A model generated the notes under the pieces. It worked only from the letters and a program-made list of their open reading frames with translations. It did no database searches and was not told the DNA's origin. A stretch of 64,000 bases of DNA from Polyodon spathula (lineage: Eukaryota > Chordata > Actinopteri > Acipenseriformes > Polyodontidae): positions 45,063,726-45,127,725 of the forward strand of contig NC_054534.1 in NCBI RefSeq assembly GCF_017654505.1. Reading direction: 5' to 3'. A program made the position numbers and the translations under genes. This document shows positions 9,340-56,040 of the stretch, piece after piece (position 1 is the first letter of the stretch; every line of letters begins with the position of its first letter).

Positions 9340-9680
9340 ATTTACAACTTTCTGCACTCAAAAACCAACTACATCCCATTCCGATTTAATGAGCATCAGA
9401 TTCTAGCCTCCATCGCCCATGCAAGGGATTCTCCTCTCTTAGCCCCCCTACCATTAAAGCCTACATCTCCAGAATTCAGTATTTCTGCCGCCTCAACTCC
9501 GTCCCTTCCCCAACAGTTCTTTCCATCCCATCAGTTTGCGTGACACTCGGAGAGATCCATCAATAGATATCCTTCACTCTTTAATCTTTACCCTCAGAAA
9601 AGGCTGCTCCTGTCCATTCAATGAGCTGACCTTGGAAGTTATATGTCTAACGCTGATTTCTTCCTTCCAGGGCTCAAGCT
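9340..9680 (+). pseudogene. tyrosine recombinase fragment, extra upstream copy
   Basis: Joining frames gives a core-binding-type segment (PPTIKAYISRIQYFCRLNS, then VLSIPSV) followed by DTRRDPSIDILHSLIFTL. These align by eye with the recombinase of the same element at 10412-10850 (for example SSDILFLLISTL and PFEDIITEALC). It lies before the RNase H segment, where a tyrosine recombinase is not expected, so it probably comes from a second, diverged copy joined at about 9680. It contains stops and frameshifts. Confidence 0.5.
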
Positions 9681-10330
9681 CCATTTCAAAATGTAACCTC
9701 TCTCTTTTGGGCCATTTCAATTATGCAATTCGCATCATCCCACAAGGTCACACTTTCATCTCCCATCTGCTCGCTCTTTCTACCACTATGAAGTCTCTCG
9801 ATGCCTCCATCATCATCCCAGACGAAGCAAGGAAAGACATTGATATGTGGTCCATCCTCCTTAACCACTGGAATGGACTTTCTCTGTTTTACGATGATGC
9901 CATATCAGCTCCGGACATGCTCCTGTTTACAGATGCCTCGCACACAGGGTTTGGAGGATTCTTTGGATCACAATGGTTTAAGTCCCTGGCCCCAGGAAAT
10001 TCATTCCCTGTCTTCTCAGTTGAAATCTTCCCCCCTTTTAGAACTTTATCCTATTGTAGTCCGCTCCCTGCTCTGGAGCCACCTATGGCCCAGAAAATCA
10101 ATCGCATTCTTCAGTGATAACTCCTCTACAGTTCATATAGTGAACAAAGGGCGCTCATCATCCCCCTCAATAATGCAGCTTCTCCGCTGCCTGGTCTGGA
10201 TCTCAGTGACCAATAACTTCATTATTCAGGCCCGCCACATCCCCGGTTCCTTTAATAATGCCGCTGACACTTTATCTTGCCTGCAGGTTCCAAGGTTTCA
10301 CAGCCTAGTTCCAGGAGCAGATCCCAACCC
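9680..10330 (+). pseudogene. DIRS/Ngaro-type reverse transcriptase C-terminus and RNase H
   Basis: The stretch carries LLGHFNYAIRIIPQGHTFIS, typical of the region after the RT palm in DIRS and Ngaro elements, and then an RNase H domain (LLFTDASHTGFGGF; FFSDNSSTVHIVNKG; HIPGSFNNAADTLS). A frameshift near 10030 moves the reading from one plus frame to another. The RT palm with its catalytic aspartates is absent, so the element cannot be functional. Recombinase sequence follows at 10412. Confidence 0.75.
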
Positions 10331-10399
10331 GCAGCTGTTGCCTCCATTCAGCCAGCTAATATTCATCTAAACTCCTCTCTCTCTGGTCTCCTCCAGTCT

Positions 10400-23496: not shown

Positions 23497-24486
23497 TTGA
23501 AGAGGGTCGTCCTCAGAGTAGTATATCACCATTTGGCAGATGTAATGGCTATTAAAAACACCACTTTCAAGGAAACAGGGCACAGCTCTGCTGACGCCAT
23601 GGGCTCCAATGGGGGACCCGTAAGAACCTGCACTACCAGTTCCAGATCCCACTTAGGCACCATGCTTTTCATGGGAGAACGAAGCCTCCGACCTCTTCAA
23701 AAAATTACAGTGCCAGGAAGTGTGCCCCAGGGGACAGAGTCAATTTTATCATGGCACACTGATATTGCTGCCAGGTATACCTTCAGAGTGGACGTGGATT
23801 TTCCCGCATCACAGGTGTTGTAAGAAGGTTAGTATTGTCTCAATAGGGCAGATCGCAGGATCATGACCTTCAGCAATGCACCAGTCTTGGAAAACTTTCC
23901 ATTTATATGAATACTGGGCTCTAGTGCTAGGCACCCTAGCAGACTGTAAGTCCTTGCGTAGTGGAAGCTGCCACAGTTGATCCAACAACATGTTGGCAAG
24001 GAGAGCAAACCAGGTGCACCTCGGCCATCTGGGTGCAACCAGCAAAATCTGTGCTCTCTCCACCCTGATCCTCTCTAGTGTCAGGCGTAATAGTGATAGC
24101 GGAGGAAACGCATACAAGAGCCCCTGTAGCCAGGGATGAGCAAGCACGTCTACTCCCAGGGGACCCCCATCTCTCTCCTTAGAGAACCATAGGGGGCAAT
24201 AAGTGGTCTTGGCTGTGGCGAAGAGGTCCACTTGTGCAGCACGAAACTTCTCCCAAATCTGTTGCAACACCTGAGGGTGCAGTCTCCATTCCGAGCTGTC
24301 TGGAGCCCCTCTGGACAGGAAATCTGCTGCCTTGTTGTCCACACCGGGGAGGTGAACCATCTTGAGGGAACACAAGTGTCTGTGTGCTGCGTGGTGAAGG
24401 CCTGGCGAGTGCAGGCCGCCTTGGTGGTTTATGAAGGCTACCACTGTAGTGTTCTCCATCTGGACAAGCACATATTTGTGCGCTAG
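23497..24486 (-). pseudogene. DIRS RNase H end and truncated tyrosine recombinase
   Basis: The 24471-23809 reading carries ENTTVVAFINHQGG and LPGVDNKAADFLSRGAP, the last part of the RNase H domain, then PSTRAQYSYKWKVFQDWC, which opens the recombinase core-binding domain. In other frames a further 80 residues of recombinase follow to about 23520 (STLKVYLAAISVCHDKI, then MKSMVPKWDLE). The C-terminal half with the R, HxxR and tyrosine residues is missing; sequence passes straight into the terminal repeat. This copy cannot catalyse integration. Confidence 0.8.
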
Positions 24487-24904
24487 CTACTGGTGAAAAT
24501 GAGAGAGCATCAGGACTACTGCTTGCAGCTCTTGGGCATATGCGCTTGCTGCCAATGTCCCTTCCATTGACCTCTTATTCCCCTCCCATTCCAGACCTCT
24601 CCCCAGCCCAGGCTGGAGGCGTGCTGAGGGGAAATCTGATGCGCAAATTTCCGGGATGGAGCCACCATTCCAGTGTCTTCAGGCACTGTCTGGACACTCG
24701 CACCAGCTGGTATCGATCTCGGACTGGGTGCAACTTAAGAGTATTTACCTAGGCTTGAAACTGGCACATTCTCAGCAGCCCTAAGGGAAGGATTCTTGAG
24801 GCGGCTGCCATCAGCTCCAACAACTTTTGGAATATTCTAACTTGTAGAAGAGCATTCTTTCTGAATTGGGAGAGCGTGACTTCCAACGAGCATGCTCACA
24901 GAGT

Positions 24905-25426
24905 TCAGTTTGATCCCCAGGAACACTGTGGACTAAGGCGTATGAAGTTGCTCTTATATTGATGTATGGAGAGCCTTAACTTCTTCACATGATCCAAGAC
25001 TTGTCTGGTGTGCCCCTCAGGGCATGCTTTGGAATGCACACAAACTAGCCAATCATCCAGGAAGCTGAAGATCCGAATACCCCACAGCCTGAGTGGAGCC
25101 AGTGCTGCATCCATGCACTTGGAAAATGTGCGGGGCGCCAGCAAGAGGAACATGTTGAGGACCCTGAGATCCAGAATAGGTCAGAAACCACCGTCTCTCT
25201 TGGGCACCAGGAAGTACCTGGAGTAGAAGGCACTGAGGACATTGCTTGGGTTTACCAAGCACAGAGCGTTCTTCTGTTGAAGATTGGCGATCTCCCGTTG
25301 AAGGAGAATCACGCACACTGGTTCGACGGTGGTAAGGAGCACAGCCTTGAAAGGTGGCGGGTTTGCAGAGCATAATTGTGTCTCATAGTCGATAGCACCC
25401 AGGAGTTCTGGGTGCAGCCTTGCCAT
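24905..25426 (-). pseudogene. DIRS reverse transcriptase domain
   Basis: Overlapping minus-strand frames give FYSRYFLVPKRDGGF (RT motif 1) from about 25190, and farther on CMDAALAPLRLWGIRIFSFL, DDWL, the palm motif with FLDD as the catalytic pair. Between them the reading shifts frame at least twice. The RT makes cDNA of the element; here it is broken. Confidence 0.8.
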
Positions 25427-25475
25427 GGGTCATGTCAGTCCGGTTGTGAGGGGGGAAGGTGGCAGCTGGATGCCC

Positions 25476-25820
25476 TCAGGGGTGGTCTCCCTTGGGCTTG
25501 GAAGGGGTCACATCTTTTTTAGGCCCCAGCCTCGGTCTCCAGCCTGAGAACCAGTTCCCTCTGGCCGACGGTGGTCCCTTACCGCCGTCTCTTCCTCTGC
25601 CTGCTTGCTTCTTCTGGGGTGAAGGGCAGCGTTTAGGCCCAGTTGCTTCTGCAGGCTGTGAAGGCCACCTTAGGCTTTGGCAGTATGCAGGTAGGCGAGA
25701 GAATTTCGAAGCAACCTCCATGGCCTTGTGGAACCTCTCAAGGTTCACATCAATGGTCACTCCAAAGGTCTGCCACGGTGTAATAGGGGCATCTAATAGC
25801 ACCACCTTCTCTGTCTCCAT
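25476..25820 (-). pseudogene. DIRS region between Gag and RT
   Basis: An open 114-codon stretch reads WQTFGVTIDVNLERFHKAME, then a basic, glycine/proline-rich tail (CPSPQKKQAGRGRDGGKG). It lies in the expected position of the Gag C-terminus and leads into the RT at 25426. Assigned by position and composition only. Confidence 0.5.
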
Positions 25821-26025
25821 GACCTTGGCCTAGGTTAGCCAGACCTGTGACTGGTACAACACCAGTATGGCCATTTGTGACGGAAAGATGAGTTCTGGTG
25901 ATAAATCTTCCTCCCAACCTGTGAGGGCGCTAAAGAACGGGAGGAGAAGCATCTGGAAGGGCTGGCCTGACAGTTCGTTTCCGGGTCAGGGAAGTGGGTC
26001 AGCCTGGATGGAAGCGCGACTCTGT

Positions 26026-26610
26026 TGTAAGACCGTATTGATTTGAGAGATAAACGAGAGGCAGCTGCAAGTAATAAGGCAGCTGCAACCGTTTATCTCG
26101 ATATCATGCGGGATTACATATAGGGGCCAGGGTAACGCTGGTCTTTTCCTTCGTTTGGGTAAATGTTCGGAGAGAGAAGGAGCGAGAGAGGAGCTCTCGT
26201 TGTTGCAGAGAATTACGTGTTGTGTATTGTTGTGTTTGTTTTGTAATTGTCTGCGTTTTGCACCACCAGACAGTTAACTCACCTATCCGGAGCTGTCGAC
26301 CAGGGTCAGCACAATCCGGATCACCACTGCACGGAACCGTCACGAAATACAGTGTCTTCACCCACCACAAGCACGTCTGCACTCACCCAGGACTGGTGAC
26401 CGTGTGTTCGTTTTGTTCGGGACTGTGTCTGTGTTATTGCTATCCCCGTGCTTTACACATTGTTGTGTATAGCCGGGGATTTATTATTTAACGGTCACCA
26501 GACCTGGATTATAAATAAAAGCACCTTTTCACTGGAAACTGTTGTCTGCCTGTCACTCCTGCATCGCATCACCGTTATACCTGTTCCCCTCCACTAGCCA
26601 CTTTGCCACA
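26026..26610 (+). mobile_element. LTR-like insertion inside the DIRS element
   Basis: It starts TGTAAGACCG and ends CTTTGCCACA. A polyadenylation signal lies in TATAAATAAAAGCACC (about 26511-26526), about 90 bp before the end. It interrupts DIRS sequence. I found no matching target duplication, so the exact ends are uncertain. Confidence 0.55.
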
Positions 26611-26814
26611 CCATTGCATTGGCCGTCCGGACTGATAACGGTGCTGACGCATTTGCCTTCTTGAGCATAGCGTCAGTAGTCCTGCAGGGCTTGGAAGGGC
26701 AAGTGGGGTCCTTGTCCCCTCTGGTGAAGGTGGAACCTTGCATCAGTACCATGACCGTGTCCCAGATGGTGGGAAACGTGCCTAGGCCAGCTTCTTGAGC
26801 TCCTGCGGTGTATA

Positions 26815-27588
26815 TCAGGGATTCTGCCGTTCTGGCATTTGAGGGAGCAGACGTCGGGTTACCCTAAGAAGTGCGAACCAGCTCCAGGAAGTCCTGGCAC
26901 AAGGGTAGGGCTTGCTGAGGGTGCCCCTTCTGTTTAAGGAAGCGGTTCCCCTTCCTCTCCTGTTCTGCGGGCCAAGGAACGTCTGTGGCAGCAGCTGCAT
27001 GCTGCATCAAGGCCCAGAACTCCTCCCTCTGCGAAATGTGCAGGAGAGGCAGTATGGAGTTCACCACTGTGGCCTGCCTAACTGAAGTGTCGGGATCAGA
27101 CACATACGTCCTCGATGCTGTGAAAGACCGCTCGCCTGGGCTTGGGGGTCTCAATGGGGCCGGGGATGGAGAGCGAGAATGAGGAAGCTGGGGCTGCCCG
27201 GTGGTATAAGGCAGTCTAACCTGTGACTTCAAGAAGTTCTGCAGCATGGTCTGCTGAGCCCTCACCATCTCCACTAGCTCCTGGAAGCGCTGCTCAGCCA
27301 AGCTTTGATGCCTCTGTGGCGATCCAGACGGAGAGCGCCTGCGCTTCCATGGGGAAGGATAGCGGTACCTCCTGGGTGACCGTTGTCGCCTGGGGAACGT
27401 CCCCTTGAGTGGTGTCTCCTAGGCGGCGACCACCTTGCCTCCATAGATGGATGCCTACGCCTCTGCACCGCTGGTGGAGTGGGTGAAGGTGATCCAGGGG
27501 TATTAGGGAGATCCCTGATCACAGTGGCAGATGGGGTTCCCTGGGGTGAGAGACTCTGCTGGCAGGGAGAGCAGTCCAACTCGCCCAC
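26815..27588 (-). pseudogene. DIRS Gag-like region
   Basis: Open minus-strand frames include MAEQRFQELVEMVRAQQTML, serine/proline-rich low complexity, then LPLLHISQREEFWALMQHAA with a helical character. Farther 5' (27588-27274) it is rich in P, R and S. Position before the RT supports Gag. No zinc knuckle was seen. Confidence 0.55.
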
Positions 27589-34139: not shown

Positions 34140-34858
34140 GTATTTTATTTATTTATTTATTTTTTATCCTTGTAGTCACATTGAGATTAAAACCTCTTTT
34201 ACGAGTGAGACCTAGCCAAACAGGTAGCAACACGTCAATCGGACAAGAACAAGTACATAATAAAATACAATTAAGACACACAAGTCACATTTAAAACAAT
34301 AATCAAAATACACAAAAGTATTCAACTATTTAAAACAATTACAACTGTCAGTCACGAAATAATGCAGTTTACTCTTAAATTGCAATAAAGATATCTGGGT
34401 CTGCAGCTTTAGTTTGGGCTGGAGCTCATTCCAGGACCATGGGGCATAATAAGCAAAGGATCCTTTACCAGCCTCAGTACGCACATTTGGGATTTTAAAA
34501 TGCAAAAAAGAATGAGATCTGAAGCTATGGTTACTATGGGAAGCTATAAGGTATTCATTTAAATAAGTATACTCATATAATTTACATTGAATAGCCTTAT
34601 ATACCAGAATATACCAGTGCTTCAACCTGCGTAAAGCCAAAGAAGTCCAGCCTACCAAATCGTATAATATACAATGATGAGTATTGAATCTTGTATTTGT
34701 ATTGTACCTCAATGCTACATGATATAGCAAGTCCAGTTTACCTAAAGTTGATGGTGATGCAAACCTATATACTGCATCATCATAGTCAATTTGTGGCAAA
34801 AACAAACAAGCAATAAGCCTCTTTTTTTTTTGTTTCCATAACATATGAAATGCATGTA
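34140..34858 (-). pseudogene. LINE 3' end, RT C-terminal domain (copy 1)
   Basis: It encodes LIACLFLPQIDYDDAVYRFA, THHCILYDLVGWTSLALRRL and YYAPWSWNELQPKLKL, the thumb/C-terminal domain of a fish LINE. The L2/Rex/CR1 group is most likely. A 3' end with TTTATTTATTTATTT lies at about 34140. Copies 2 and 3 are at 42180-42827 and 42833-43130. Only the C-terminal third is present, the usual 5' truncation. Confidence 0.7.
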
Positions 34859-34861
34859 GCA

Positions 34862-35905
34862 AAGGAGAAGCAATACTAATGGGGGATTTCAACTTCCCCC
34901 AAATAAAATGGGAAAACCCAGTGGGGAGCACGACAGATGAAATTTAAATGGTGGAAATGACAAATGACTGCTTCCTAACACAATTTGTCAAGGCAACGAC
35001 TAGAGGGGAGGCATGCCTTGATTTAGTCTTTTCAAATAACGAAGACAGAATAACTAAAACAGAGGTCAGAGAATCACTAGCAAACTCAGACCACAACATG
35101 GTCTCATTTGAAGTGCTTTTTAAAACCCCAAAAGTAATGACTAAAGCTAAGGTTTACAATTTGAGAAAAGCAAACTATGAAGGTATGAAACAGAGACTAA
35201 CAGAAGTAGACTGGAGTAAAATAGAGAAAACATCCACAGAAAAAGGAAGGTTGTTCTTCAAAAATGTAGTACTAGAGGAGCAAAACAATTACATCACTAA
35301 AGTAGACAAATCTAAATGTAAAACTAAATTGCCAAAATGGATTAATAGAGCCATTTAAAAAATATTCAGTGAAAAAAGGCACTTTACAGAGCGTGAAAAA
35401 GAGACCAAAAAGAAAGTACACAGAAAGAGTACACGGAACTGCAAATGCAAGTCAAAAAGGAAGTTAGAAAGGCCAAGAGAGAAATAGAAATGAGCATTTC
35501 TAAGGGGGCTAAAATCAATTCCAAAATGTTTTTCCAATATTACAACAGCAAGAGAGCATTCAAAGAGGAGATTAAATGTCTAAGAGATACAAATGGCAAA
35601 ATCGTAAATGAAGAAAAAAAAATAGCAAATATATTAAATGATTACTTTTCACAAGTTTTTACAAAGGAGGATACTGACAACATGCCCCACATGTCATCCA
35701 GTTCCTATCCAGTTTTAAATAACTTTAGCATAACCGAGGCAGAAGTATTAAAGGGACTAGGAGCTCTTAAAATAAACAAATCCCCTAGGCCGGATGAGAT
35801 CCTCCCAATAGTATTCAAAGAAATGAAAGAAGTTATTTACAAACCACTAACCAAGATCATGCAGCAGTTGACACAGGGGTGGTACCGACAGACTGGAAAA
35901 TTGCA
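34862..35905 (+). pseudogene. CR1-type LINE, endonuclease to first RT motifs
   Basis: Plus-strand frames read LMGDFNFPQIKWENP, CLDLVFSNNEDRI, NSDHNMVSFE (endonuclease motifs), then a lysine-rich linker. NDYFSQVFTKE, ALKINKSPRPDEILPIVFKE and WYRQTGKLQT (a decayed VPTDWKIA-type motif) follow. Stops after 34944 and at about 35357 split it. The RT palm is lost where the large inverted-repeat structure begins near 35908. Confidence 0.75.
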
Positions 35906-35968
35906 AACGAAGAACACATATAACTGTATATGTAAACACACTACCGCTGTCCACCATATCAATACAGT

Positions 35969-36655
35969 TGTAACAGGGAGAGATCTGTGCTGACTCTGCT
36001 GGCGCGTCCACAGGGCTGCAGGAAGAGGGCGGCAGTCGTCCAACAACCGCCTGTGAGTCATGGCAGTGACACGGGGAGGTGGGAGAGTGGGTGTGTGGAC
36101 TTTTCCCCACTCTGAATGGCTGAGAGGCGTGTCTTGGGAGATTGTTAGCCCTATAAATTAACGCTCTGTTGTTTCCTCAGGTCTGCCTTGTTAAACGCGC
36201 CGAGAGTGCGGAAGCACTGGTCAACGACCGAGAACCAGTGGGAGAGAAAGAAACGGAGGTTCAGAGCGAGACATTGAGGGCGGGGAACCCTTGGGCAGAC
36301 CCCTGATTAGTATATCAGAGCAGGCTAGTGAGCCGGCGGTGTAGGACGGTGATCCGGGTCGCACGGGCAGCGGCAACTGGGATATCGCTGCAAAGTGCAG
36401 CTCCTTTTCTTTGTAGTTTTTGTTACTGTTTTATTTTCTCTGTTTCTTTGTGCCTTGTTTTGAATTACTGTTTCGAAGCACCTGCAAGGGCGTCGGTATT
36501 GTGTACCATCGTTTGGTATGCCCGTGGTTCCCACAGCGCCATCTGCGGGATTAAAGAAAAAATAGCACCCTGAAATAAAACTGGGCACCTGTGTGGTGTT
36601 GCCAAATTCACCTATCTGTCTCCTGTGTTAGTGAATTACCCACCACCCTTCCACA
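35969..36655 (+). repeat. 5' LTR of the Gmr1-like element
   Basis: 687 bp, TGTAACAGGG...CTTCCACA. It contains a CCTATAAATTAAC TATA-type box near 36150 and AATAAAACTGGGC near 36574 as polyadenylation signal. Compared with the 3' LTR it has a few substitutions, a 10-nt stretch (CGTGTCTTGG) missing there, and lacks that LTR's hairpin insert. Confidence 0.92.
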
Positions 36656-36657
36656 CG

Positions 36658-36677
36658 TGGTGTCAGAAGTGGGATTC
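36658..36677 (+). promoter_or_regulatory. primer-binding site, complementary to tRNA-Leu(CAA)
   Basis: TGGTGTCAGAAGTGGGATTC lies 2 nt after the 5' LTR. As far as I remember the tRNA, it matches all 20 nt of the 3' end of vertebrate tRNA-Leu(CAA) including CCA, so that tRNA is the likely primer for minus-strand synthesis. Confidence 0.8.
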
Positions 36678-36724
36678 ACTGGCACTGCCCCAAGCAGTGC
36701 ATTTACAGAAGGAGTAGACTGGCA

Positions 36725-37375
36725 ATGGATGCTACCCAGTTTGCCATGATGATGGACCTCCTGCGACAGACGCTCACTGCGGCAGTGCAGGGGATAGCTA
36801 GACCCACAGCTCCAGACCACTCCCTACAGAGACCCACCAAAATGACTGCCGAGGATCGACCTGACGCCTACTTGGATGTGTTCGAGGCCATGGCGATCTC
36901 GGCCGGGTGGCTCCAAGCCCAGTGGGCTAGTTGTTTGTTGCCCCAGCTCACCGGGGAGGCTCAAGCAGCTGCGAGGACGCTGTCCCCGGAGCACATGCTG
37001 GATTACCCCCTGCTGAAGGCAGCCATCCTGAGTCATGTGGGAGCCACCCCGGAGGGCTACCAGAAGAAATTCCGGGAGGAGCAGTTTGCGGCGTGGGAGC
37101 ACCCCCGAGCTATTGCCCACCGGCTAAAAGATTACGCTATGGGCTGGCTGAACCCGGATGCGGTCACCAAAGCCAGGTTGGTGGAACTGGTCGTGGTGGA
37201 ACGGTTTCTGGAGTGCCTGGCCCCAGGACCTCGGCTATGGGTCCAGCGACAGGCACCAGATACTCTGGATCGGGCGGTAGAACTGGCGGAACAGTACCAG
37301 GCGGCGGAGCCAACTCCTGCGAGACTGTCTGGGAGGAGCGCGGCCACCGGATCGACCCCTCAACTGGCCCCGTAG
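36725..37375 (+). pseudogene. gag: Gag (capsid) of the Gmr1-like element, SCAN-like C-terminus
   Basis: A 216-residue ORF starts at the first ATG after the primer site. Residues 113-191 (KKFREEQFAAWEHP, LVELVVVERFLECL, then DRAVELAEQYQ) resemble the SCAN domain of mammalian zinc-finger proteins, which is known to derive from a Gmr1-like Gag capsid C-terminal domain. Capsid would package element RNA. The ORF ends at TAG 37373, yet the same frame runs on through a basic glycine-rich stretch into the zinc knuckle, normally part of Gag; the stop is therefore probably a mutation, or less likely a read-through site. Confidence 0.85.
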
Positions 37376-39556
37376 AGGGCGAGGGGACTCGGGGGAAGGG
37401 GTAGTTCAGGATTTGGTAAGGGGGTGTCGGTGGGAGCTCCCGGCCCGGGAACTGGGGCAGGGTGGGGATACCCACGGGCTACTGCAGTGTCGGACCGGGG
37501 TCTCGCGCAGCCGCCTTATCGGCGAGCCCCTTTTATGGCTTCAGTGTTTCCCCCTTTTGCCAAAACTTCGGGGAGAGAAACCAGCCCACCGAGGTGTTGG
37601 ACATGCAGGGAGGTGGGCCACCTCGCCCGGGACTGCCCCGTGATGGAGTGTGACCTCAGCCGACCAGGTAGGCACGTTCAATTACCTCAGTCACTTCAGC
37701 ACACAGGTTTTGTTATTCCCGTGACAGTGGATGGTACAAAAACCCAGGCTCTCCTGGATTCAGGGTGTGGTCAGTCTCTAGTACAAGAGAGCCTAATCTC
37801 ACCGGGGCATAAACGTATATTGGGACAGGTGCATATTAAATGTATTCATGGGGATGCCCGCTCCTATCCCAAGATCAATGTGTGTATGACTATTGGCCAG
37901 CAGGTGACGGAGGTGCAGGTAGGATTATGTCCTCGATTGCCGGTACCAGTAGTTCTGGGATGGGACTGTGAGCAGTTTAAAGATTGGTTGACTGCCCTGA
38001 CAGCCCCGTCCTCTTTATTGGCGAAGAAAGAGGAAGTAATTGGAGAGATCTTTCCCTTTCGCGATCCAGAATGGTTTTGCCATAAATTTAAACCCCGTAA
38101 AACTAAACGGGAGTGCTGGATCGCTAAGAATGAGGGCTGGCAATGGAGGGAGTCAGAGAAGTTTCAGGTGGGAGCGGTTGGTGAAGAGTCCGGGGGGGAG
38201 GTCGCGGAGCCAGCGCAGGGGTCTGGCTCGGCTGCCTCTGCTCGGGACCGACCTGACCCCGAGTTGGAAGCCATGGGAGCTGATTTCTTAGCTCGCTCCC
38301 GTGACTTCCGACTCGAGCAAGGGCGTGACGACGTGCTGGGCAGGCTCTTTGACCAAGCGGCGGTGGTTAATGGTCGGGTAGTCGAGCCCAGACGTGCCGC
38401 CACATACCCCCACTTTGAAATTGATCGATACCTGCTGTACCATGTTGATAAATTACCCCAGACCGGTGAAGGGTGTCATCAGTTGTTCATTCCTCAGCCC
38501 TTTAAGGAGGATTTGTTGCAGCTGGCTCACGCTATTCCCCTGTCTGGTCATTTGGGAAGGGATAAAACTAAAGCAAGGCTTGTGTCACGGTTCTTCTGGC
38601 TGGGGCTGGATGGCGATGTCAAACGGTTTTGTGAGCGGTGTGGGGAATGTCAAAAGGCCAGCCCTAGAGCCATTCCACGAGCCCCACTGGTGCCTTTGCC
38701 CCTAGTGGAAGCTCCGTTTGAGCGTATTGGGATGGACATAGTTGGGCCATTAGAGAGGAGAGCGGCAGGATACACCCACCTACTTGTCATTCTGGATTAC
38801 GCCATGCGTTATCCAGAGGCTATTCCCCTCCGATCTATGTCCGCTAAGTCCGTTGCCAACGAGCTTGTAAAGGTTTTTTCCCGGGTGGGGATTCCCAAGG
38901 AGATACTAACCGATCAAGGCACCAATTTTATGTCCCGGCTAATCCGCGGAACATGTAAGCTTTTGGGAATTAAGACCATTAGGACCTTGGTGTTTCATCC
39001 TCAGACCGATGGTCTGGTGGAACGCTTTAATAAGAGCATGTTGCGCAGGTTTATTCGTAGTGATGTGCGTTACAGGGACCAGCTGATTCCTCCTCTTCTC
39101 TTTGCGATCAGAGAGGTTCCCCGGGCTTCCATGGGGTTTTCACCATTCAAGCTGTTGTATGGGCGGAGACCCCGGGGCGTGCTCGATCTGGTCAGAGAGA
39201 TGTGGGAGGAGCAGCAGGACAATTCGACCAATACCGTCCGGTATGTGTTGGACCTGCGCAAGAGTCTTGAGTCAGTTGGGAAATGGGCACATGACAATTT
39301 GCAGCAGGCACAGCACAGACAGGAGACACAATATAACCAAGGAGCCCGGTTGCGCACATTTCAGCCGAGGGATAAGGTACTTCTATTATTATCCAGTTCT
39401 GAGTCGAAACTCTTGGCTAAGTGGCAAAGACCCTTTGAGGTTACACGCCAGGTTGGGAAGGTGGACTATGAGATCTGCCAGCCGGAGCGACAGACAGATA
39501 AACATATTTATCATATCAACCTCTTAAAGCTTTGGTTACAACAGAGGCGTTGTTAG
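37376..39556 (+). pseudogene. pol: Pol part 1: zinc knuckle, protease, integrase
   Basis: Residues are numbered from the TTG/GTG-type start at 37424. A CCHC knuckle lies at C58, C61, H66, C71; an aspartic protease with D-S-G at 112-114; the integrase zinc site at H369, H376, C406, C409; and the integrase catalytic triad D438, D497, E533 with 35 residues between the last two, as in the D,D-35-E rule. A C-terminal domain (RDKVLLLLSS, HINLLKLW) follows. It ends at TAG 39554, but the frame continues into reverse transcriptase without a shift. No frameshift is seen in the 2.1 kb. Confidence 0.92.
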
Positions 39557-41021
39557 TGGTGCATGCAGATGACGTCATGGACCTGGGACCTGATCTTTCT
39601 GTGTTGGCAAGGATCAATACAGATTGCTGAGAATCTGACACCAACGCAGAAATGTAAGGCTCACGGTCTGGTGGCAGAGTTTCCTGACGTTTTCTCTTCC
39701 GTCCTGGGGCAAACTCGAGTAGCCCATCATCACATTGATATTGAGCCGGGGTTGCCAGTTCGCCAAAGGCCGTACTGTTTACCTGAGCGTAAAAGACAGG
39801 TAATAAAAGCGGAAATTGACGAAATGCTGAGACTGGGGGTAATAGAGGAGTCCCAAAGTGACTGGAACAGTCCGATTGTTTTAGTCGATAAGCCAGACGG
39901 GTCAACTCGATTTTGCATTGATTTCAGACAAATCAATGAGAAATCGAAATTTGACGCTTATCCGATGCCCCGAGTAGATGAGTTGCTGGAGCGTCTAGGC
40001 ACGGCTCATTTTATGACGACACTGGATTTAACAAAGGGGTACTGGCAGATACCCCTGACTCCGGAATCTAGAGAGAAGATGACGTTTTCGACTCCCTTCG
40101 GGTTGTACCAATTTAGGACCATGCCCTTTGGGTTGCACGGAACACCCGCCACTTTCCAACGGATGATGGAACGCATCTTGCGGTCGCATCAGCAGTACGC
40201 TGCTGCTTACTTAGATGACGTGGTTATCCACAGTGAGGATTGGCCGAGTCATCTGTGTAAGGTGGCGGCGGTGCTGCAATCCTTGCGGGAGGCGGGGCTC
40301 ACTGCCAACCCAAAGAAGTGTGCCATTGGGAAGAGTGAGTCAGAGTATTTGGGGTATCGAGTAGGGGGCGGCCAGATCAGACCGCTGATTGCTAAGGTGA
40401 AAGCCTTGGCTGACTGGCCGGTTCCTACAACCAAAACCTAGGTGAACTCTTTCTTGGGACTAGTGGGTTATTATAGAAAGTTCATCCAGAGCTTCGCTAC
40501 GCTCACTGCTCCCTTGACAGACCTCACCCGGAAGGCTGCCCCAAATATGGTTCAGTGGACGGAGTCATGACAGAGGGCCTTTCTCGCCTTGAAGCGGAGG
40601 CTGTGTACTGAGCCAGTACTATGCAGCTCGGATTTTGGTAAGAGGTTCACCCTGCAGACAGATGCATCAGAGAGAGGTCTTGGGGCAGTGTTGTCGCAGA
40701 AGGTTCGGGGAAGCGAGCACCCGGTCCTGTATATCAGCAGGAAGCTCCTTCCCCGCGAGAAAAATTATAGCACCATCGAGAAGGAGTGTCTCGCGGTAAA
40801 ATGGGCAGTCGAGTCACTCCGGTACTACCTCCTGGGGTGACACTTCACCCTGGTTACAGATCGTGCCCCCTTAGCATGGCTTCACCGGATGAAAGATAGC
40901 AACGCCAGAATCACACGGTGGTACTTGGCCTTGCAGCCCTATGCCTTCAGGGTAGTCCACTGAGCAGGAAAGTTGCATCAAAGCGCAGACTTTTTCTCTC
41001 AGGAAGGCATGGGGGTGTAAG
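39557..41021 (+). pseudogene. pol: Pol part 2: reverse transcriptase and RNase H
   Basis: Reverse transcriptase motifs in order, numbered from 39563: FCIDFRQIN at 117-125, LDLTKGYWQI at 154-163 (catalytic D155), MPFGLHGTPATFQRMM at 187-202, and YLDD at 216-219. RNase H follows (LQTDASERGLGAVLSQ; IEKECLAVKWAVESLRYYL). In-frame stops at 40439 (TAG), 40568, 40838 and 40961 (TGA) break it, with the same frame readable through all of them to TAA at 41019. The order after integrase is the Gmr1 arrangement. Confidence 0.92.
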
Positions 41022-41050
41022 ATTTTCGAATGAACCGGCGGTGTCCTTCT

Positions 41051-41060
41051 GAGGGGAAGG
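41051..41060 (+). promoter_or_regulatory. polypurine tract
   Basis: GAGGGGAAGG lies 3 nt before the 3' LTR, the usual site of plus-strand priming. Confidence 0.8.
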
Positions 41061-41063
41061 ATA

Positions 41064-41773
41064 TGTAACAGGGAGAGATCTGTGCTGACTCTGCTGGCGC
41101 GTCCACAAGGCTGCAGGAAGAGAGTGGCAGTCGTCCAACAACCGCCTGTGAGTCATGGCAGTGACACGGGGAGGTGGGAGAGTGGGTGTGTGGACTTTCC
41201 CCCTCTCTGAATGGCTGAGAGGGAGATTGTTAGCCCTATAAATTAACGCTCTGTTGTTTCCTCAGGTCTGCCCTGTTAAACGCGCCGAGAGTGCGGAAGC
41301 ACTGGTCAACGACCGAGAACCAGTGGGAGAGAAAGAAACGGAGGTTCAGAGCGAGACATTGAGGGCGGGGAACCCTTGGGCAGACCCCTGATTAGTATAT
41401 CAGAGCAGGCTAGTGAGCCGGCGGTGTAGGACGGTGATCTGGGTCGCACGGGCAGCGGCAACTGGGATATCGCTGCAAAGTGCAGCTCCTTTTCTTTGTA
41501 GTTTTTGTTACTGTTTTATTTTCTCTGTTTCTTTGTGCCTTGTTTTGAATTACTGTTTCGAAGCACCTGCAAGGGCGCCGGTATTGTGTACCATCGTTTG
41601 GTATGCCCGTGGTTCTGTTTACCATCGTTGGTAAATCAGACCACGGTCCCACAGCGCCATCTGCGGGATTAAAGAAAAAATAGCACCCTGAAATAAAACT
41701 GGGCACCTGTGTGGTGTTGCCAAATTCACCTATCTGTCTCCTGTGTCAGTGAATTACCCACCACCCTTCCACA
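41064..41773 (+). repeat. 3' LTR of the Gmr1-like element
   Basis: 710 bp, same ends as the 5' LTR. It carries about 33 extra nt near 41615-41648 forming a hairpin with its flank (CCGTGGTTCTGTTTACCA and TGGTAAATCAGACCACGG), and lacks 10 nt near 41219. A handful of transitions separate the two LTRs. Confidence 0.92.
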
Positions 41774-41819
41774 CAGTGATAAAACACATAACTGATCCGC
41801 CCATCCAGTGTGTGCAGAT

Positions 41820-41840: not shown

Positions 41841-42179
41841 ATTCTGTACTATTGTACCCAAGTCCAGGGTGGATTGTTACTCTGACACTATTTGAGCCAG
41901 CGACGTGTAGTTATTGGAACTAGCGCATCGCAATTATTGCGCAGATATTGATATATTCAGCCGAATTAGGGCTTTCGCTCAATTCAAATTTGATTGCGTT
42001 ATGTGCATATTGAATGTCCACCTAGAATACATTTGCATCACATATTTCTAATTTCCGATGCATTACCATATGCTAATAGGACCATACTAAAAGGAACACA
42101 AGGAAGGCAGTGTGCTGGACAGAGGTGAGTGCATGTTTCCACACTCGTCTGTTGGACATGGGAATACGCTATAAATGTC

Positions 42180-42827
42180 ACTGTGATATGAACATGTTAT
42201 ATATTTTATGGAAACAAAAAAAGAAGCTTATTGCTTGTATGTTTTTGCCGCAACTTGACTGTGGTGATGCCGTATATAGGTTTACATCACCATCAACTTT
42301 AGGTAAACTGGACTCGCTATATCATGCAGCATTGAGGTACAATACAAATCCAAGATTTAATACTCATCATTGTATATTATACGATTTGGTAGGCTGGACT
42401 TCTTTGGTCTTTACGCAGGTTGAAGCACTGGTATATTCTGGTATATAAGGCTATTCAATGTAAATTATAGGAATATACTTCTTTAAATGAATACCTTATA
42501 GCTTCTCATAGTAACCATAGCCTCAGATCTCATTCTATTTTGCATTTTAAAATCCCAAATGTGCGTACTGAGGCTGGTAAAGGATCCTTTGCTTATTATG
42601 CCCCATGGACCTGGAATGAGCTCCAGCCCAAACTAAAGCTGCAGACCCAGATATCTTTATTGCAATTTAAGAGTAAACTGCATGATTTTGTGACAAAGTT
42701 TTTGTTGTGTACTTGTTCTTGTTGTCCAATTGACTTGTTGCTACCTGCTTGGCTAGGTCTCACTCATAAAAGAGGTTTTAATCTCAATGTTACTACAAGG
42801 ATAATACATTTTTATATATATATATGA
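42180..42827 (+). pseudogene. LINE 3' end (copy 2)
   Basis: Same C-terminal RT domain as 34140-34858, here on the plus strand (LIACMFLPQLDCGDAVYRFT; YAPWTWNELQPKLKL), with a frameshift near 42415 and a (TA)n tail. Its 5' half is in the palindrome arm, its 3' half in the loop. Confidence 0.75.
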
Positions 42828-42832
42828 AGCTA

Positions 42833-43130
42833 TAGTTACTATGGGAAGCTAATAGGTATTCATTTAAATAAGTATATTCATATAATTTACATTGAATAGC
42901 CTTATATACCAGAATATACCAGTGCTTCAACCTACGTAAAGCCAAAGAAGTCCAGCCTACCAAATCGCATAATATACAATGAGTATTGAATCTTGTATTT
43001 GTATTGTACCTCAATGCTGCATGATATAGCGAGTCCAGTTTACCTAAAGCTGATGGTGATGCAAACCTATATACTGCATCACTGTAGTGAATTTGCGGCA
43101 CAAACATACAAGCAATAAGCCTCTTTTTTT
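42833..43130 (-). pseudogene. LINE 3' end (copy 3, 5' half only)
   Basis: Inverted copy of the first half of copy 2 (FVPQIHYSDAVYRFASPSAL; THCILCDLVGWTSLALRRL). It ends at the loop boundary of the palindrome. Confidence 0.75.
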
Positions 43131-43605
43131 TCCCATAACATATATAACATGTTCATATCATAATGATGTTTATAACGTATTCCCATGCCCAACAGACGAG
43201 TGTGGAAACATGCACACACCTCTGTCCAGCACACTGCCTTCCTTGTGTTCCTTTAATGTGGTCTATTAACATATGGTAATGCATCAGTAATTAGAAACAT
43301 GAGATGCAAATTTATTCTAGGTGGACATTCAGTATGCACATAGCACAATCAAATTTGAATTGGGCGAAAGCCCTAATTTGTCTGAATGTACCAATATCTG
43401 CGCAATAACTGCGCACCACTAGTTCTAATAACTACACATAGCTGGCTCAAATAGTGTCCGAATAACAATCCACTCTGGAGTTGGGTACAATAGTACAAAC
43501 ATACAATAGTACAGAACCCCCGGATGGGCGGATCAGTTATGTGTTTTATCACTGTATTGATATGATGATTTACATATACAGTTATATGTGTTCTTCGCTG
43601 CTCCA

Positions 43606-55000: not shown

Positions 55001-55246
55001 ATCTGTGTTTCCAGCCCGGAGGATTTTGTTAGCTGCTTAAAGGGAAACGGAAGTAGTTGCTTGTAGCTCTTTGGTTTGTTGTGTCCTGGACAGGCGGCGC
55101 AGATTATCTGGTTCTAAATGCGTTCACCAGGCTTAGTGACTGATTGGGCTTGATAGGGGGAGAGCTGAGGAAGGCTGGGGAAACGGTGGCAGTGACCCTT
55201 ATACCCCACCTCATTTTGGAAGCAAATTGAACCCGAGGTAACCAAA
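55001..55246 (+). promoter_or_regulatory. DCAF10 putative promoter and 5' UTR
   Basis: Sequence becomes less AT-rich. An ETS-type site (ACGGAAGT, 55047-55054) is present and no TATA box is seen, as usual for a housekeeping promoter. The start codon context is ACCAAAATGA, with A at -3. Confidence 0.4.
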
Positions 55247-55653
55247 ATGAGCTCTGATCGCCGAAAGGAGCGCAAAGATGATGCGGAGTCCCGGTTGGAC
55301 GGGCCCAGCGATGGTTCTGCAGGGGATCCCGACGTTGATCATTACCAGGCGGGGGGATCGAGTCCGTGCACCACATCAGATCAGCCGCAGCAACTTCCCA
55401 CTTGCGGGTCTGACGAAAGCAGCATCGGTTCAGGGCTAATCAACTCCACAGCCAAGCAGCCGCTCAGCAGCGGGAATAACGTATTCTGGTGGCTGAGAGA
55501 GAGGTGTTTAGGCAGAGGAGTTGTTGTTGACCCGTTCCGGGAAAACTTCAGGATAATGACCAGCTTATATAGCTCAATGAACCCGGCTGATTCGGTTAAT
55601 CTGAGTACCAGAACCCATGGAGCTGTGTTTAACTTGGAGTACTCACCAGATGG
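55247..55653 (+). CDS. DCAF10: DCAF10 exon 1, CUL4-DDB1 substrate receptor
   Basis: This first coding exon (135 codons plus two bases) starts at ATG 55247 and ends at a GTAAGG donor within the codon for Gly136. Residues 1-80 are polar, low-complexity and poorly conserved. From about residue 83 it matches vertebrate DCAF10: FWWLRERCLGRG, VDPFRENFRIMTSLYSSMNP, ADSVNLSTRTHGAVFNLEYS. DCAF10 (WDR32) is a WD40 protein that binds DDB1 and delivers substrates to the CUL4-RBX1 ubiquitin ligase. The N-terminal tail is shorter than in mammals. Exon 2 begins at 58577 in matching phase. Confidence 0.95.
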
Positions 55654-56040
55654 GTAAGGACAATTTATCGTTTCAAAGATGCTTTTCTTTGCAAGCAAGC
55701 TGTGTCACTTGCAGACTGGTAGATAAGCTAATTGGTCACGAACAGGTGCCAATGCACACATTCATCAACAGTGCAAATACAGCCAGAATAAAGCAACAAT
55801 CTGTTCAAGGTTAGATGTTTTAAAGTCATTGTAGCTAACAACATAATTCCATGAATCACACCTGTTTAGTTATTGCATTATCTACATAGCTCTCACATCT
55901 ACGTAGCTCTCAAATATGCAGTTTTGAAAGAAACGGGTCATAGCATACATGATGTCTGGTATTAATGTGGGTTAAATAAAGCCATAATTTTCCGTGGCTT
56001 ATTCCTTGAATATCTGTTCCACATTTATTATTAGTTTGCT

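What the first reader, a model, noticed from the sequence alone, without database searches (positions are those of the whole stretch)
35969..41773. Nearly complete Gmr1-like gypsy element with integrase before reverse transcriptase
Domain order is Gag, CCHC, protease, integrase (D438, D497, E533), reverse transcriptase (YLDD), RNase H. Ordinary Ty3/gypsy elements place integrase last. This copia-like order in a gypsy-type element is known only for the Gmr1 group in deuterostomes. Both LTRs, a tRNA-Leu primer site, a polypurine tract and target duplication are intact, giving a good reference copy.
Basis: partly seen in the sequence, partly recalled or inferred. Interest (0 to 1): 0.8.

Follow-up and report, generated by a model that had tools for sequence, protein, structure and literature searches.

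The report
Decayed Gmr1-type jumping gene in sturgeon
This stretch is an old, inactivated copy of a known kind of retrotransposon (Gmr1) whose integrase gene sits before rather than after its reverse transcriptase; the odd order is real, but the kind is already described.

Summary
Window 35969-41773 is one LTR retrotransposon: LTRs of 687 and 710 nt (668 of 677 aligned bases identical), 4-bp target duplication, primer-site candidate, polypurine tract, and the order Gag(SCAN)-CCHC-protease-integrase-RT-RNase H. RT and integrase are Ty3/gypsy type. Of 262 listed database proteins, 126 match both integrase and RT, and in 126 of 126 integrase comes first within one protein, which speaks against two joined insertions. 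In trees of each domain the integrase-first rows lie on one side of a branch against six RT-first controls (98/95, 99/98). This fits the published Gmr1 clade.

Two corrections. The copy is not intact: six in-frame stops break Gag-Pol. And Gmr1 is not deuterostome-only: crustacean and annelid members are in print (PMC3587641, PMC8220671; passages read). I also found an uninterrupted integrase-first element with a related capsid on a contig filed under a bacterial symbiont, probably host-animal DNA (L001).

Gag carries a SCAN-type capsid domain; all 22 Gag hits are from sturgeons. New member of a known kind; low interest.

The parts
35965..35968 (.). target-site duplication CAGT, 5' copy
   Evidence: Same four bases at 41774-41777.
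35969..36655 (+). 5' LTR, 687 nt; TATAAA at 36152, AATAAA at 36574
   Evidence: 668 of 677 aligned bases identical to the 3' LTR; K2P 0.0135; motifs.
36658..36675 (+). primer binding site candidate, read as tRNA-Leu
   Evidence: Two bases after the LTR; tRNA-Leu identity is recalled, not tested.
36725..37372 (+). Gag open stretch (ATG at 36725), ends at in-frame TAG 37373
   Evidence: 22 of 22 proteins found name Acipenser, 17 of 22 carry PF02023 (SCAN), best 83% identity over 88%; stop.
37049..37306 (+). SCAN-type capsid domain in Gag
   Evidence: PF02023 E=7.5e-18, 64.6 bits against a cut-off of 27; five solved SCAN chains, best E=2.3e-9.
37592..37639 (+). CCHC zinc knuckle (nucleocapsid)
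   Evidence: PF00098 E=2.1e-5, above cut-off; motif at 37595.
37715..37969 (+). aspartic protease, active site LLDSG at 37751
   Evidence: PF00077 E=0.007, below its cut-off; motif.
38489..39529 (+). integrase: H2C2 finger, DD35E core (D at 38735, D at 38912, E at 39020), p58-type C-terminus
   Evidence: PF17921 E=3.3e-16, PF00665 E=9.3e-11, PF22938 E=3.6e-7; triad spacing.
39725..40432 (+). reverse transcriptase, YLDD at 40208
   Evidence: PF00078 E=6.1e-31; Ty3 RT 4ol8 E=5.2e-54 over residues 57-292 of the ORF.
40571..41017 (+). RNase H, broken by in-frame TGA at 40838 and 40961; last stop TAA at 41018
   Evidence: PF17919 E=4.3e-31 on 40571-40837; stops; the part after 40838 was not searched by profile.
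41051..41061 (+). polypurine tract
   Evidence: GAGGGGAAGGA two bases before the 3' LTR.
41064..41773 (+). 3' LTR, 710 nt
   Evidence: differs from the 5' LTR by 9 substitutions and two gaps of 10 and 33 nt.
41774..41777 (.). target-site duplication CAGT, 3' copy

Best explanation
It is a single, decayed insertion of a Gmr1-clade Ty3/gypsy LTR retrotransposon in a sturgeon-like genome. When intact, such an element is copied the ordinary way: the LTR promoter makes a full-length RNA, one Gag-Pol frame is translated, the SCAN-type capsid and zinc knuckle package the RNA, the protease cuts the polyprotein, RT primed from a tRNA makes double-stranded DNA, and the integrase inserts it with a short target duplication. 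Integrase-before-RT changes the order of the polyprotein pieces, not the steps. Shown here: the anatomy, the family relation of each domain, the order within single proteins of relatives, the broken frame of this copy. Inferred: the life cycle, the host, the tRNA, the age.
For: Paired LTRs, TSD, PBS candidate and PPT around one frame. Gypsy-type RT, RNase H and integrase profiles; Ty3 is the best solved relative of both RT and integrase (foamy virus integrase is almost level, 7e-20 against 2.7e-20). 126 of 262 listed proteins match both integrase and RT and 126 of 126 have integrase first; 124 of 262 match both the last 100 residues of the integrase ORF and the first 120 of the RT ORF, 124 of 124 in that order, 118 of them 11-37 residues apart. 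Trees: 44 integrase-first rows on one side of a branch against 6 RT-first rows, RT 98/95, IN 99/98, in 98% and 100% of 200 bootstrap trees. Gag hits name Acipenser in 22 of 22.
Against: No Gmr1 type sequence (Gadus) was on hand, so membership rests on order, domains and published descriptions. The 42 integrase-first database rows in the trees came from searches with this element, so their grouping is partly built in; only L001 came another way. The six RT-first rows and L001 have long branches, the tool warns that their places are unsure, and I did not run its one-clade test. The window's own place differs between trees and is not strongly supported in either: beside a 12-row group with mostly teleost names in RT (90/87), beside Acipenser P0124/P0158 and the lizard P0211 in IN (89/79).
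Confidence: 0.96

Rival explanations
1. A chimera of two insertions: a truncated element giving Gag to integrase and another giving RT to RNase H, brought together by chance or assembly.
For: An in-frame stop lies between the two halves at 39554, and the two trees place the window beside different neighbours.
Against: In 126 of 126 proteins with both matches the order is the same; all parts here share one frame inside one LTR pair; integrase and RT distances agree, r 0.90 on the 44 integrase-first rows.
Confidence: 0.01
2. A true Ty1/copia element, with the copia order by descent.
For: Domain order only.
Against: RT and integrase match gypsy-type profiles and Ty3; no RVT_2 or gag_pre-integrase hit at E up to 1 (that these two are the copia profiles is recalled).
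Confidence: 0.005
3. A host gene or domesticated copy kept for its SCAN-type Gag.
For: A strong SCAN match; two A. ruthenus records are named as SCAN or zinc finger genes (P0249, P0257).
Against: The copy still has both LTRs and a decayed pol in one frame, and Gag runs into a stop at 37373. No test of selection was made.
Confidence: 0.02

Closest known systems
Gmr1 clade of Ty3/gypsy (Metaviridae)
   Same: Gypsy-type RT and integrase with integrase upstream of RT (order stated in passages of PMC6238403, PMC8220671, PMC3587641); joint Gag-Pol as in the table of PMC11117352 (Gmr1-4, consensus 6058-6465 bp, Gag-Pol 1506-1634 aa).
   Different: This copy is 5.8 kb with six stops; its LTRs (687/710 nt) are longer than the 337-518 bp in that table. 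It is its own family: best integrase 62% and best RT 66% among the 42 long rows; among all listed RT hits one unnamed record reaches 95% over 70% of the query and the next 72% over 68%.
SCAN domain of vertebrate zinc finger proteins
   Same: Gag matches PF02023 at 64.6 bits and solved SCAN domains. PMC3424704 says SCAN is derived from a Gmr1-like Gag; PMC4592553 reports the homology and the hypothesis (passages).
   Different: Here it is part of a Gag with zinc knuckle and Pol downstream, not of a transcription factor.
Yeast Ty3
   Same: Best solved relative of RT (E=5.2e-54) and integrase (E=2.7e-20).
   Different: RT before integrase: PDB chain 7q5b matches RT at 585-820 and integrase at 1089-1444.
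Ty1/copia elements
   Same: Integrase before RT (PMC6238403 passage).
   Different: RT and integrase profiles differ.

Membership tests
Gmr1 clade | Integrase upstream of RT in a single Gag-Pol frame | tested here: met
   stops interrupt the frame in this copy, but in 126 of 126 relatives with both matches they lie in one protein in that order.
Gmr1 clade | RT and integrase of Ty3/gypsy type | tested here: met
   PF00078, PF17919, PF17921, PF00665, PF22938; Ty3 best in PDB for both.
Gmr1 clade | RT and integrase trees group it with other integrase-first elements, apart from RT-first gypsy | tested here: met
   98/95 and 99/98 with 44 integrase-first and 6 RT-first rows; 42 of the rows came from searches with this element.
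Gmr1 clade | Groups with the type element of Gadus morhua | not tested
   Type sequence not on hand.
Gmr1 clade | SCAN-like capsid | tested here: met
LTR retrotransposon | Two LTRs, TSD, PBS, PPT | tested here: met
   the tRNA identity of the PBS is recalled.
Ty1/copia | Copia-type RT (RVT_2) | tested here: not met
   No such hit at E up to 1.
Retroviridae | env between pol and the 3' LTR | tested here: not met
   43 bases lie between the last stop (41018-41020) and the 3' LTR at 41064.

The most novel reading that the evidence does not exclude
The integrase-first order and the SCAN-type capsid are one inherited package older than the split of protostomes and deuterostomes. L001, filed under a chemosynthetic symbiont genome but probably DNA of its invertebrate host, carries an uninterrupted 1476-residue integrase-first frame. 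Its Gag aligns over 148 residues with the sturgeon-type Gag profile (hhalign probability 95%, E=2.7e-8), with a weak SCAN match (E=3.2e-4, below cut-off), while the Gags of three RT-first controls give only zinc-knuckle columns. Against: no solved SCAN chain is matched by the L001 Gag at E up to 1, and the host of L001 is not proved. SCAN would then be a remnant of a capsid type that long predates vertebrates. (Odds lowered from 0.55 to 0.5 when, left out before, was added.)
Probability: 0.5. Interest if true: 0.35.

Novelty: new member of a known kind. Interest (0 to 1): 0.17.

Why it matters
The element itself is ordinary for its clade. It adds a sturgeon-type family whose Gag carries a clear SCAN-type capsid, and the comparison with RT-first elements recovered by one scan shows that the odd gene order goes with one branch in both the RT and the integrase tree. 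It also warns that two Acipenser ruthenus records named as SCAN or zinc finger genes look like Gag pieces of this family.

Tried and rejected
Two insertions joined: rejected on 126 of 126 relatives and distance agreement. Copia: rejected on profiles. A conserved programmed stop between Gag and Pol, or between integrase and RT: rejected, since 19 of 262 proteins match both sides of the first stop and 124 of 262 both sides of the second. My first test of the second stop (0 found) used a slice in the wrong frame; one search is the redone one. Scans of viral contigs with the integrase ORF, the RT ORF and an RT alignment gave no relatives. Further copies in the window: none at E 1e-5 (DNA) or 1e-3 (protein). 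Copies in the host genome could not be searched (genome search did not complete).

The six stops are more than the LTR divergence predicts: about 1.1-1.3 expected, P 0.0009-0.002; with divergence raised by two standard errors 1.8-2.1 expected, P 0.01-0.02. CpG decay, insertion of an already broken copy carried by others, or editing could each explain it; not resolved.

Full report
What is there. Window 35969-41773 is one LTR retrotransposon on the + strand. Its LTRs are 687 nt (35969-36655) and 710 nt (41064-41773); of 677 aligned bases 668 are identical, with 8 transitions, 1 transversion and two gaps of 10 and 33 nt, K2P 0.0135 with a standard error of about 0.004. At 1e-9 changes per site and year (recalled, and unsure for sturgeons) that is some 7 million years. 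CAGT flanks both ends. An 18-nt site that I read from memory as complementary to the 3' end of tRNA-Leu lies at 36658-36675, and a polypurine tract at 41051-41061. The 2-kb bins of the element have GC 0.51-0.57; the other bins have 0.31-0.47, except 24-28 kb at 0.54-0.55.

Coding. One frame runs from the ATG at 36725 to TAA at 41018, with six in-frame stops on the way: 37373, 39554, 40439 (TAG), 40568, 40838, 40961 (TGA). The domains found all lie in this one frame, so I see no frameshift. The other two frames of the same stretch hold 60 and 80 stops. Pfam on the separate pieces gives, in order, SCAN (E=7.5e-18), zf-CCHC (2.1e-5), RVP (0.007, below cut-off), Integrase_H2C2 (3.3e-16), rve (9.3e-11), Integrase_p58_C (3.6e-7), RVT_1 (6.1e-31), RT_RNaseH_2 (4.3e-31). 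The integrase triad is D454, D513, E549 of the ORF at 37376 with 35 residues between the last two; the protease motif is LLDSG.

Is the order real? Three protein searches listed 262 proteins: 120 of 1026 RT hits, 120 of 1769 integrase hits (only the 7974 candidates sharing most words were scored), 22 of 22 Gag hits. I placed the window's Gag, protease, integrase, RT and RNase H on all 262. Both integrase and RT are found in 126, and integrase comes first in 126 of 126. Where a host is named in these lists it is a turtle, teleost, sturgeon, bichir, gar, coelacanth, frog or lizard, apart from one Aeromonas assembly record (P0068), which I take as contamination; many records are unnamed. Relatives also run across both main stops: 19 of 262 match both sides of the Gag stop, 124 of 262 both sides of the integrase-RT stop. 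So I read these stops as decay of this copy and the joint as inherited.

A control set. A scan of prokaryote genome contigs with an RT alignment returned seven loci. I take them as eukaryote DNA in bacterial assemblies (inference). Six of the seven (L002-L007) have RT, RNase H, then integrase; one (L001) has Gag, protease, integrase, RT, RNase H in a 1476-residue frame (tblastn; Pfam for L001-L006). Trees of RT and of integrase were made from 50 rows: the window, 42 of the 126 proteins (those with at least 320 integrase and 225 RT residues aligned), L001, L002-L006 and Ty3; L007 was left out as fragmented. In both, the 44 integrase-first rows are one side of a branch: RT 98/95, integrase 99/98, in 98% and 100% of 200 bootstrap trees. 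L001 and the unnamed P0204 split off first among them, with the other 42 rows together at 98/95 in the integrase tree. L001 is on average 45% (IN) and 43% (RT) identical to integrase-first rows, 29% and 35% to RT-first rows. Integrase and RT distances agree with r 0.95 (50 rows) and 0.90 (44 rows), none of 2000 permutations as high. Limits: 42 rows came from searches with this element; the RT-first rows and L001 have long branches; the root is set by the controls; no copia and no Gmr1 type sequence was included; the one-clade test was not run.

Gypsy or copia. No RVT_2 hit at E up to 1. Ty3 is the best solved relative of RT (5.2e-54) and of integrase (2.7e-20, with foamy virus integrase close behind at 7e-20).

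Host. All 22 Gag hits name Acipenser sinensis (20) or A. ruthenus (2), best 83% identity, and one unnamed ENA record matches RT at 95% over 70% of the query. I infer a sturgeon or paddlefish. The host genome could not be searched: the genome search did not complete in five tries.

SCAN. The Gag match (37049-37306) reaches five PDB SCAN sequences: PEG3, zinc finger proteins 24, 42 and 174, and ZSCAN10. PMC3424704 says that SCAN derives from a Gmr1-like Gag; PMC4592553 reports the homology and calls the exaptation a hypothesis (passages). L001 Gag aligns with the sturgeon Gag profile over 148 residues (probability 95%, E=2.7e-8) and has a sub-threshold SCAN match, with a sub-threshold Retrotrans_gag match in the same region. 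It matches no solved SCAN chain at E up to 1, only nucleocapsid knuckles and unrelated chains. The Gags tried of three of the six RT-first loci (L003, L004, L006) give zinc-knuckle columns alone at E 0.02-0.07 and no SCAN match at E up to 1; L002, L005 and L007 were not tried.

What is known (passages read, not whole papers). PMC6238403, PMC8220671 and PMC3587641 describe Gmr1 as gypsy elements with integrase upstream of RT. PMC3587641 reports four Gmr1-like crustacean elements as the first in protostomes, from RT/RH pieces and a separate integrase piece, so the order itself is not shown there. PMC8220671 places one annelid family, LGF3, in Gmr1; the passages do not say what order LGF3 has. 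PMC8556966 lists Gmr1 among clades of several phyla but did not find it in its own annelid set. PMC4131045 counts about 200 copies in a frog, PMC11117352 four Gmr families in Tetraodontiformes. The 2002 paper of Goodwin and Poulter and the 2011 paper of Emerson and Thomas are recalled; the latter was not held. Searches for Gmr1 with mollusc or bivalve (10 of 7,626 shown), SCAN domain with Gmr1 and invertebrate (4 papers), sturgeon with Gmr1 (2 papers) and SCAN domain with gypsy and sturgeon (none) showed no listing that describes an integrase-first element with SCAN-type Gag in an invertebrate, or a Gmr1 family in sturgeon; one paper listed (PMC7231272) I did not open, so this is no proof of absence.

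Verdict. The element is a decayed member of a known clade that is not restricted to deuterostomes, and it is not an intact reference.

Noticed in passing
L001:845-5272 (JAQRGB010000044.1): An uninterrupted integrase-first gypsy element, with a polypurine-like tract near the contig end, in an assembly filed as a Candidatus Thiodubiliella symbiont; probably DNA of the animal host (inference; that the genus lives in deep-sea mussels is recalled).
   Followed up: partly
P0249, P0257: Acipenser ruthenus records named SCAN domain-containing protein 1-like and Zinc finger protein 197 look like Gag pieces of this family.
   Followed up: no
36725-41018: Six in-frame stops and no frameshift seen, more stops than the LTR divergence predicts; cause unresolved.
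   Followed up: partly
41614-41646: 33-nt stretch present only in the 3' LTR; by eye it has inverted-repeat character and resembles the stretch just upstream.
   Followed up: no
34326-34943, 42080-43152: A repeated LINE-like coding fragment (by eye) on both sides of the element, partly as an inverted pair with arms of 125 and 41 nt; no Pfam hit at E up to 0.01 for the two pieces tried.
   Followed up: partly
34948-35990: LINE-like debris (weak endonuclease match, E=0.011, below cut-off) into whose end the element seems to be inserted.
   Followed up: no
9458-10370 and 23809-27418: Open stretches that read by eye like DIRS or Ngaro retroelement fragments; no Pfam hit at E up to 0.01 for the three pieces tried.
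   Followed up: partly
55196-55657: Open stretch that reads by eye like the first exon of a DCAF10-type host gene; no Pfam hit at E up to 0.01.
   Followed up: no
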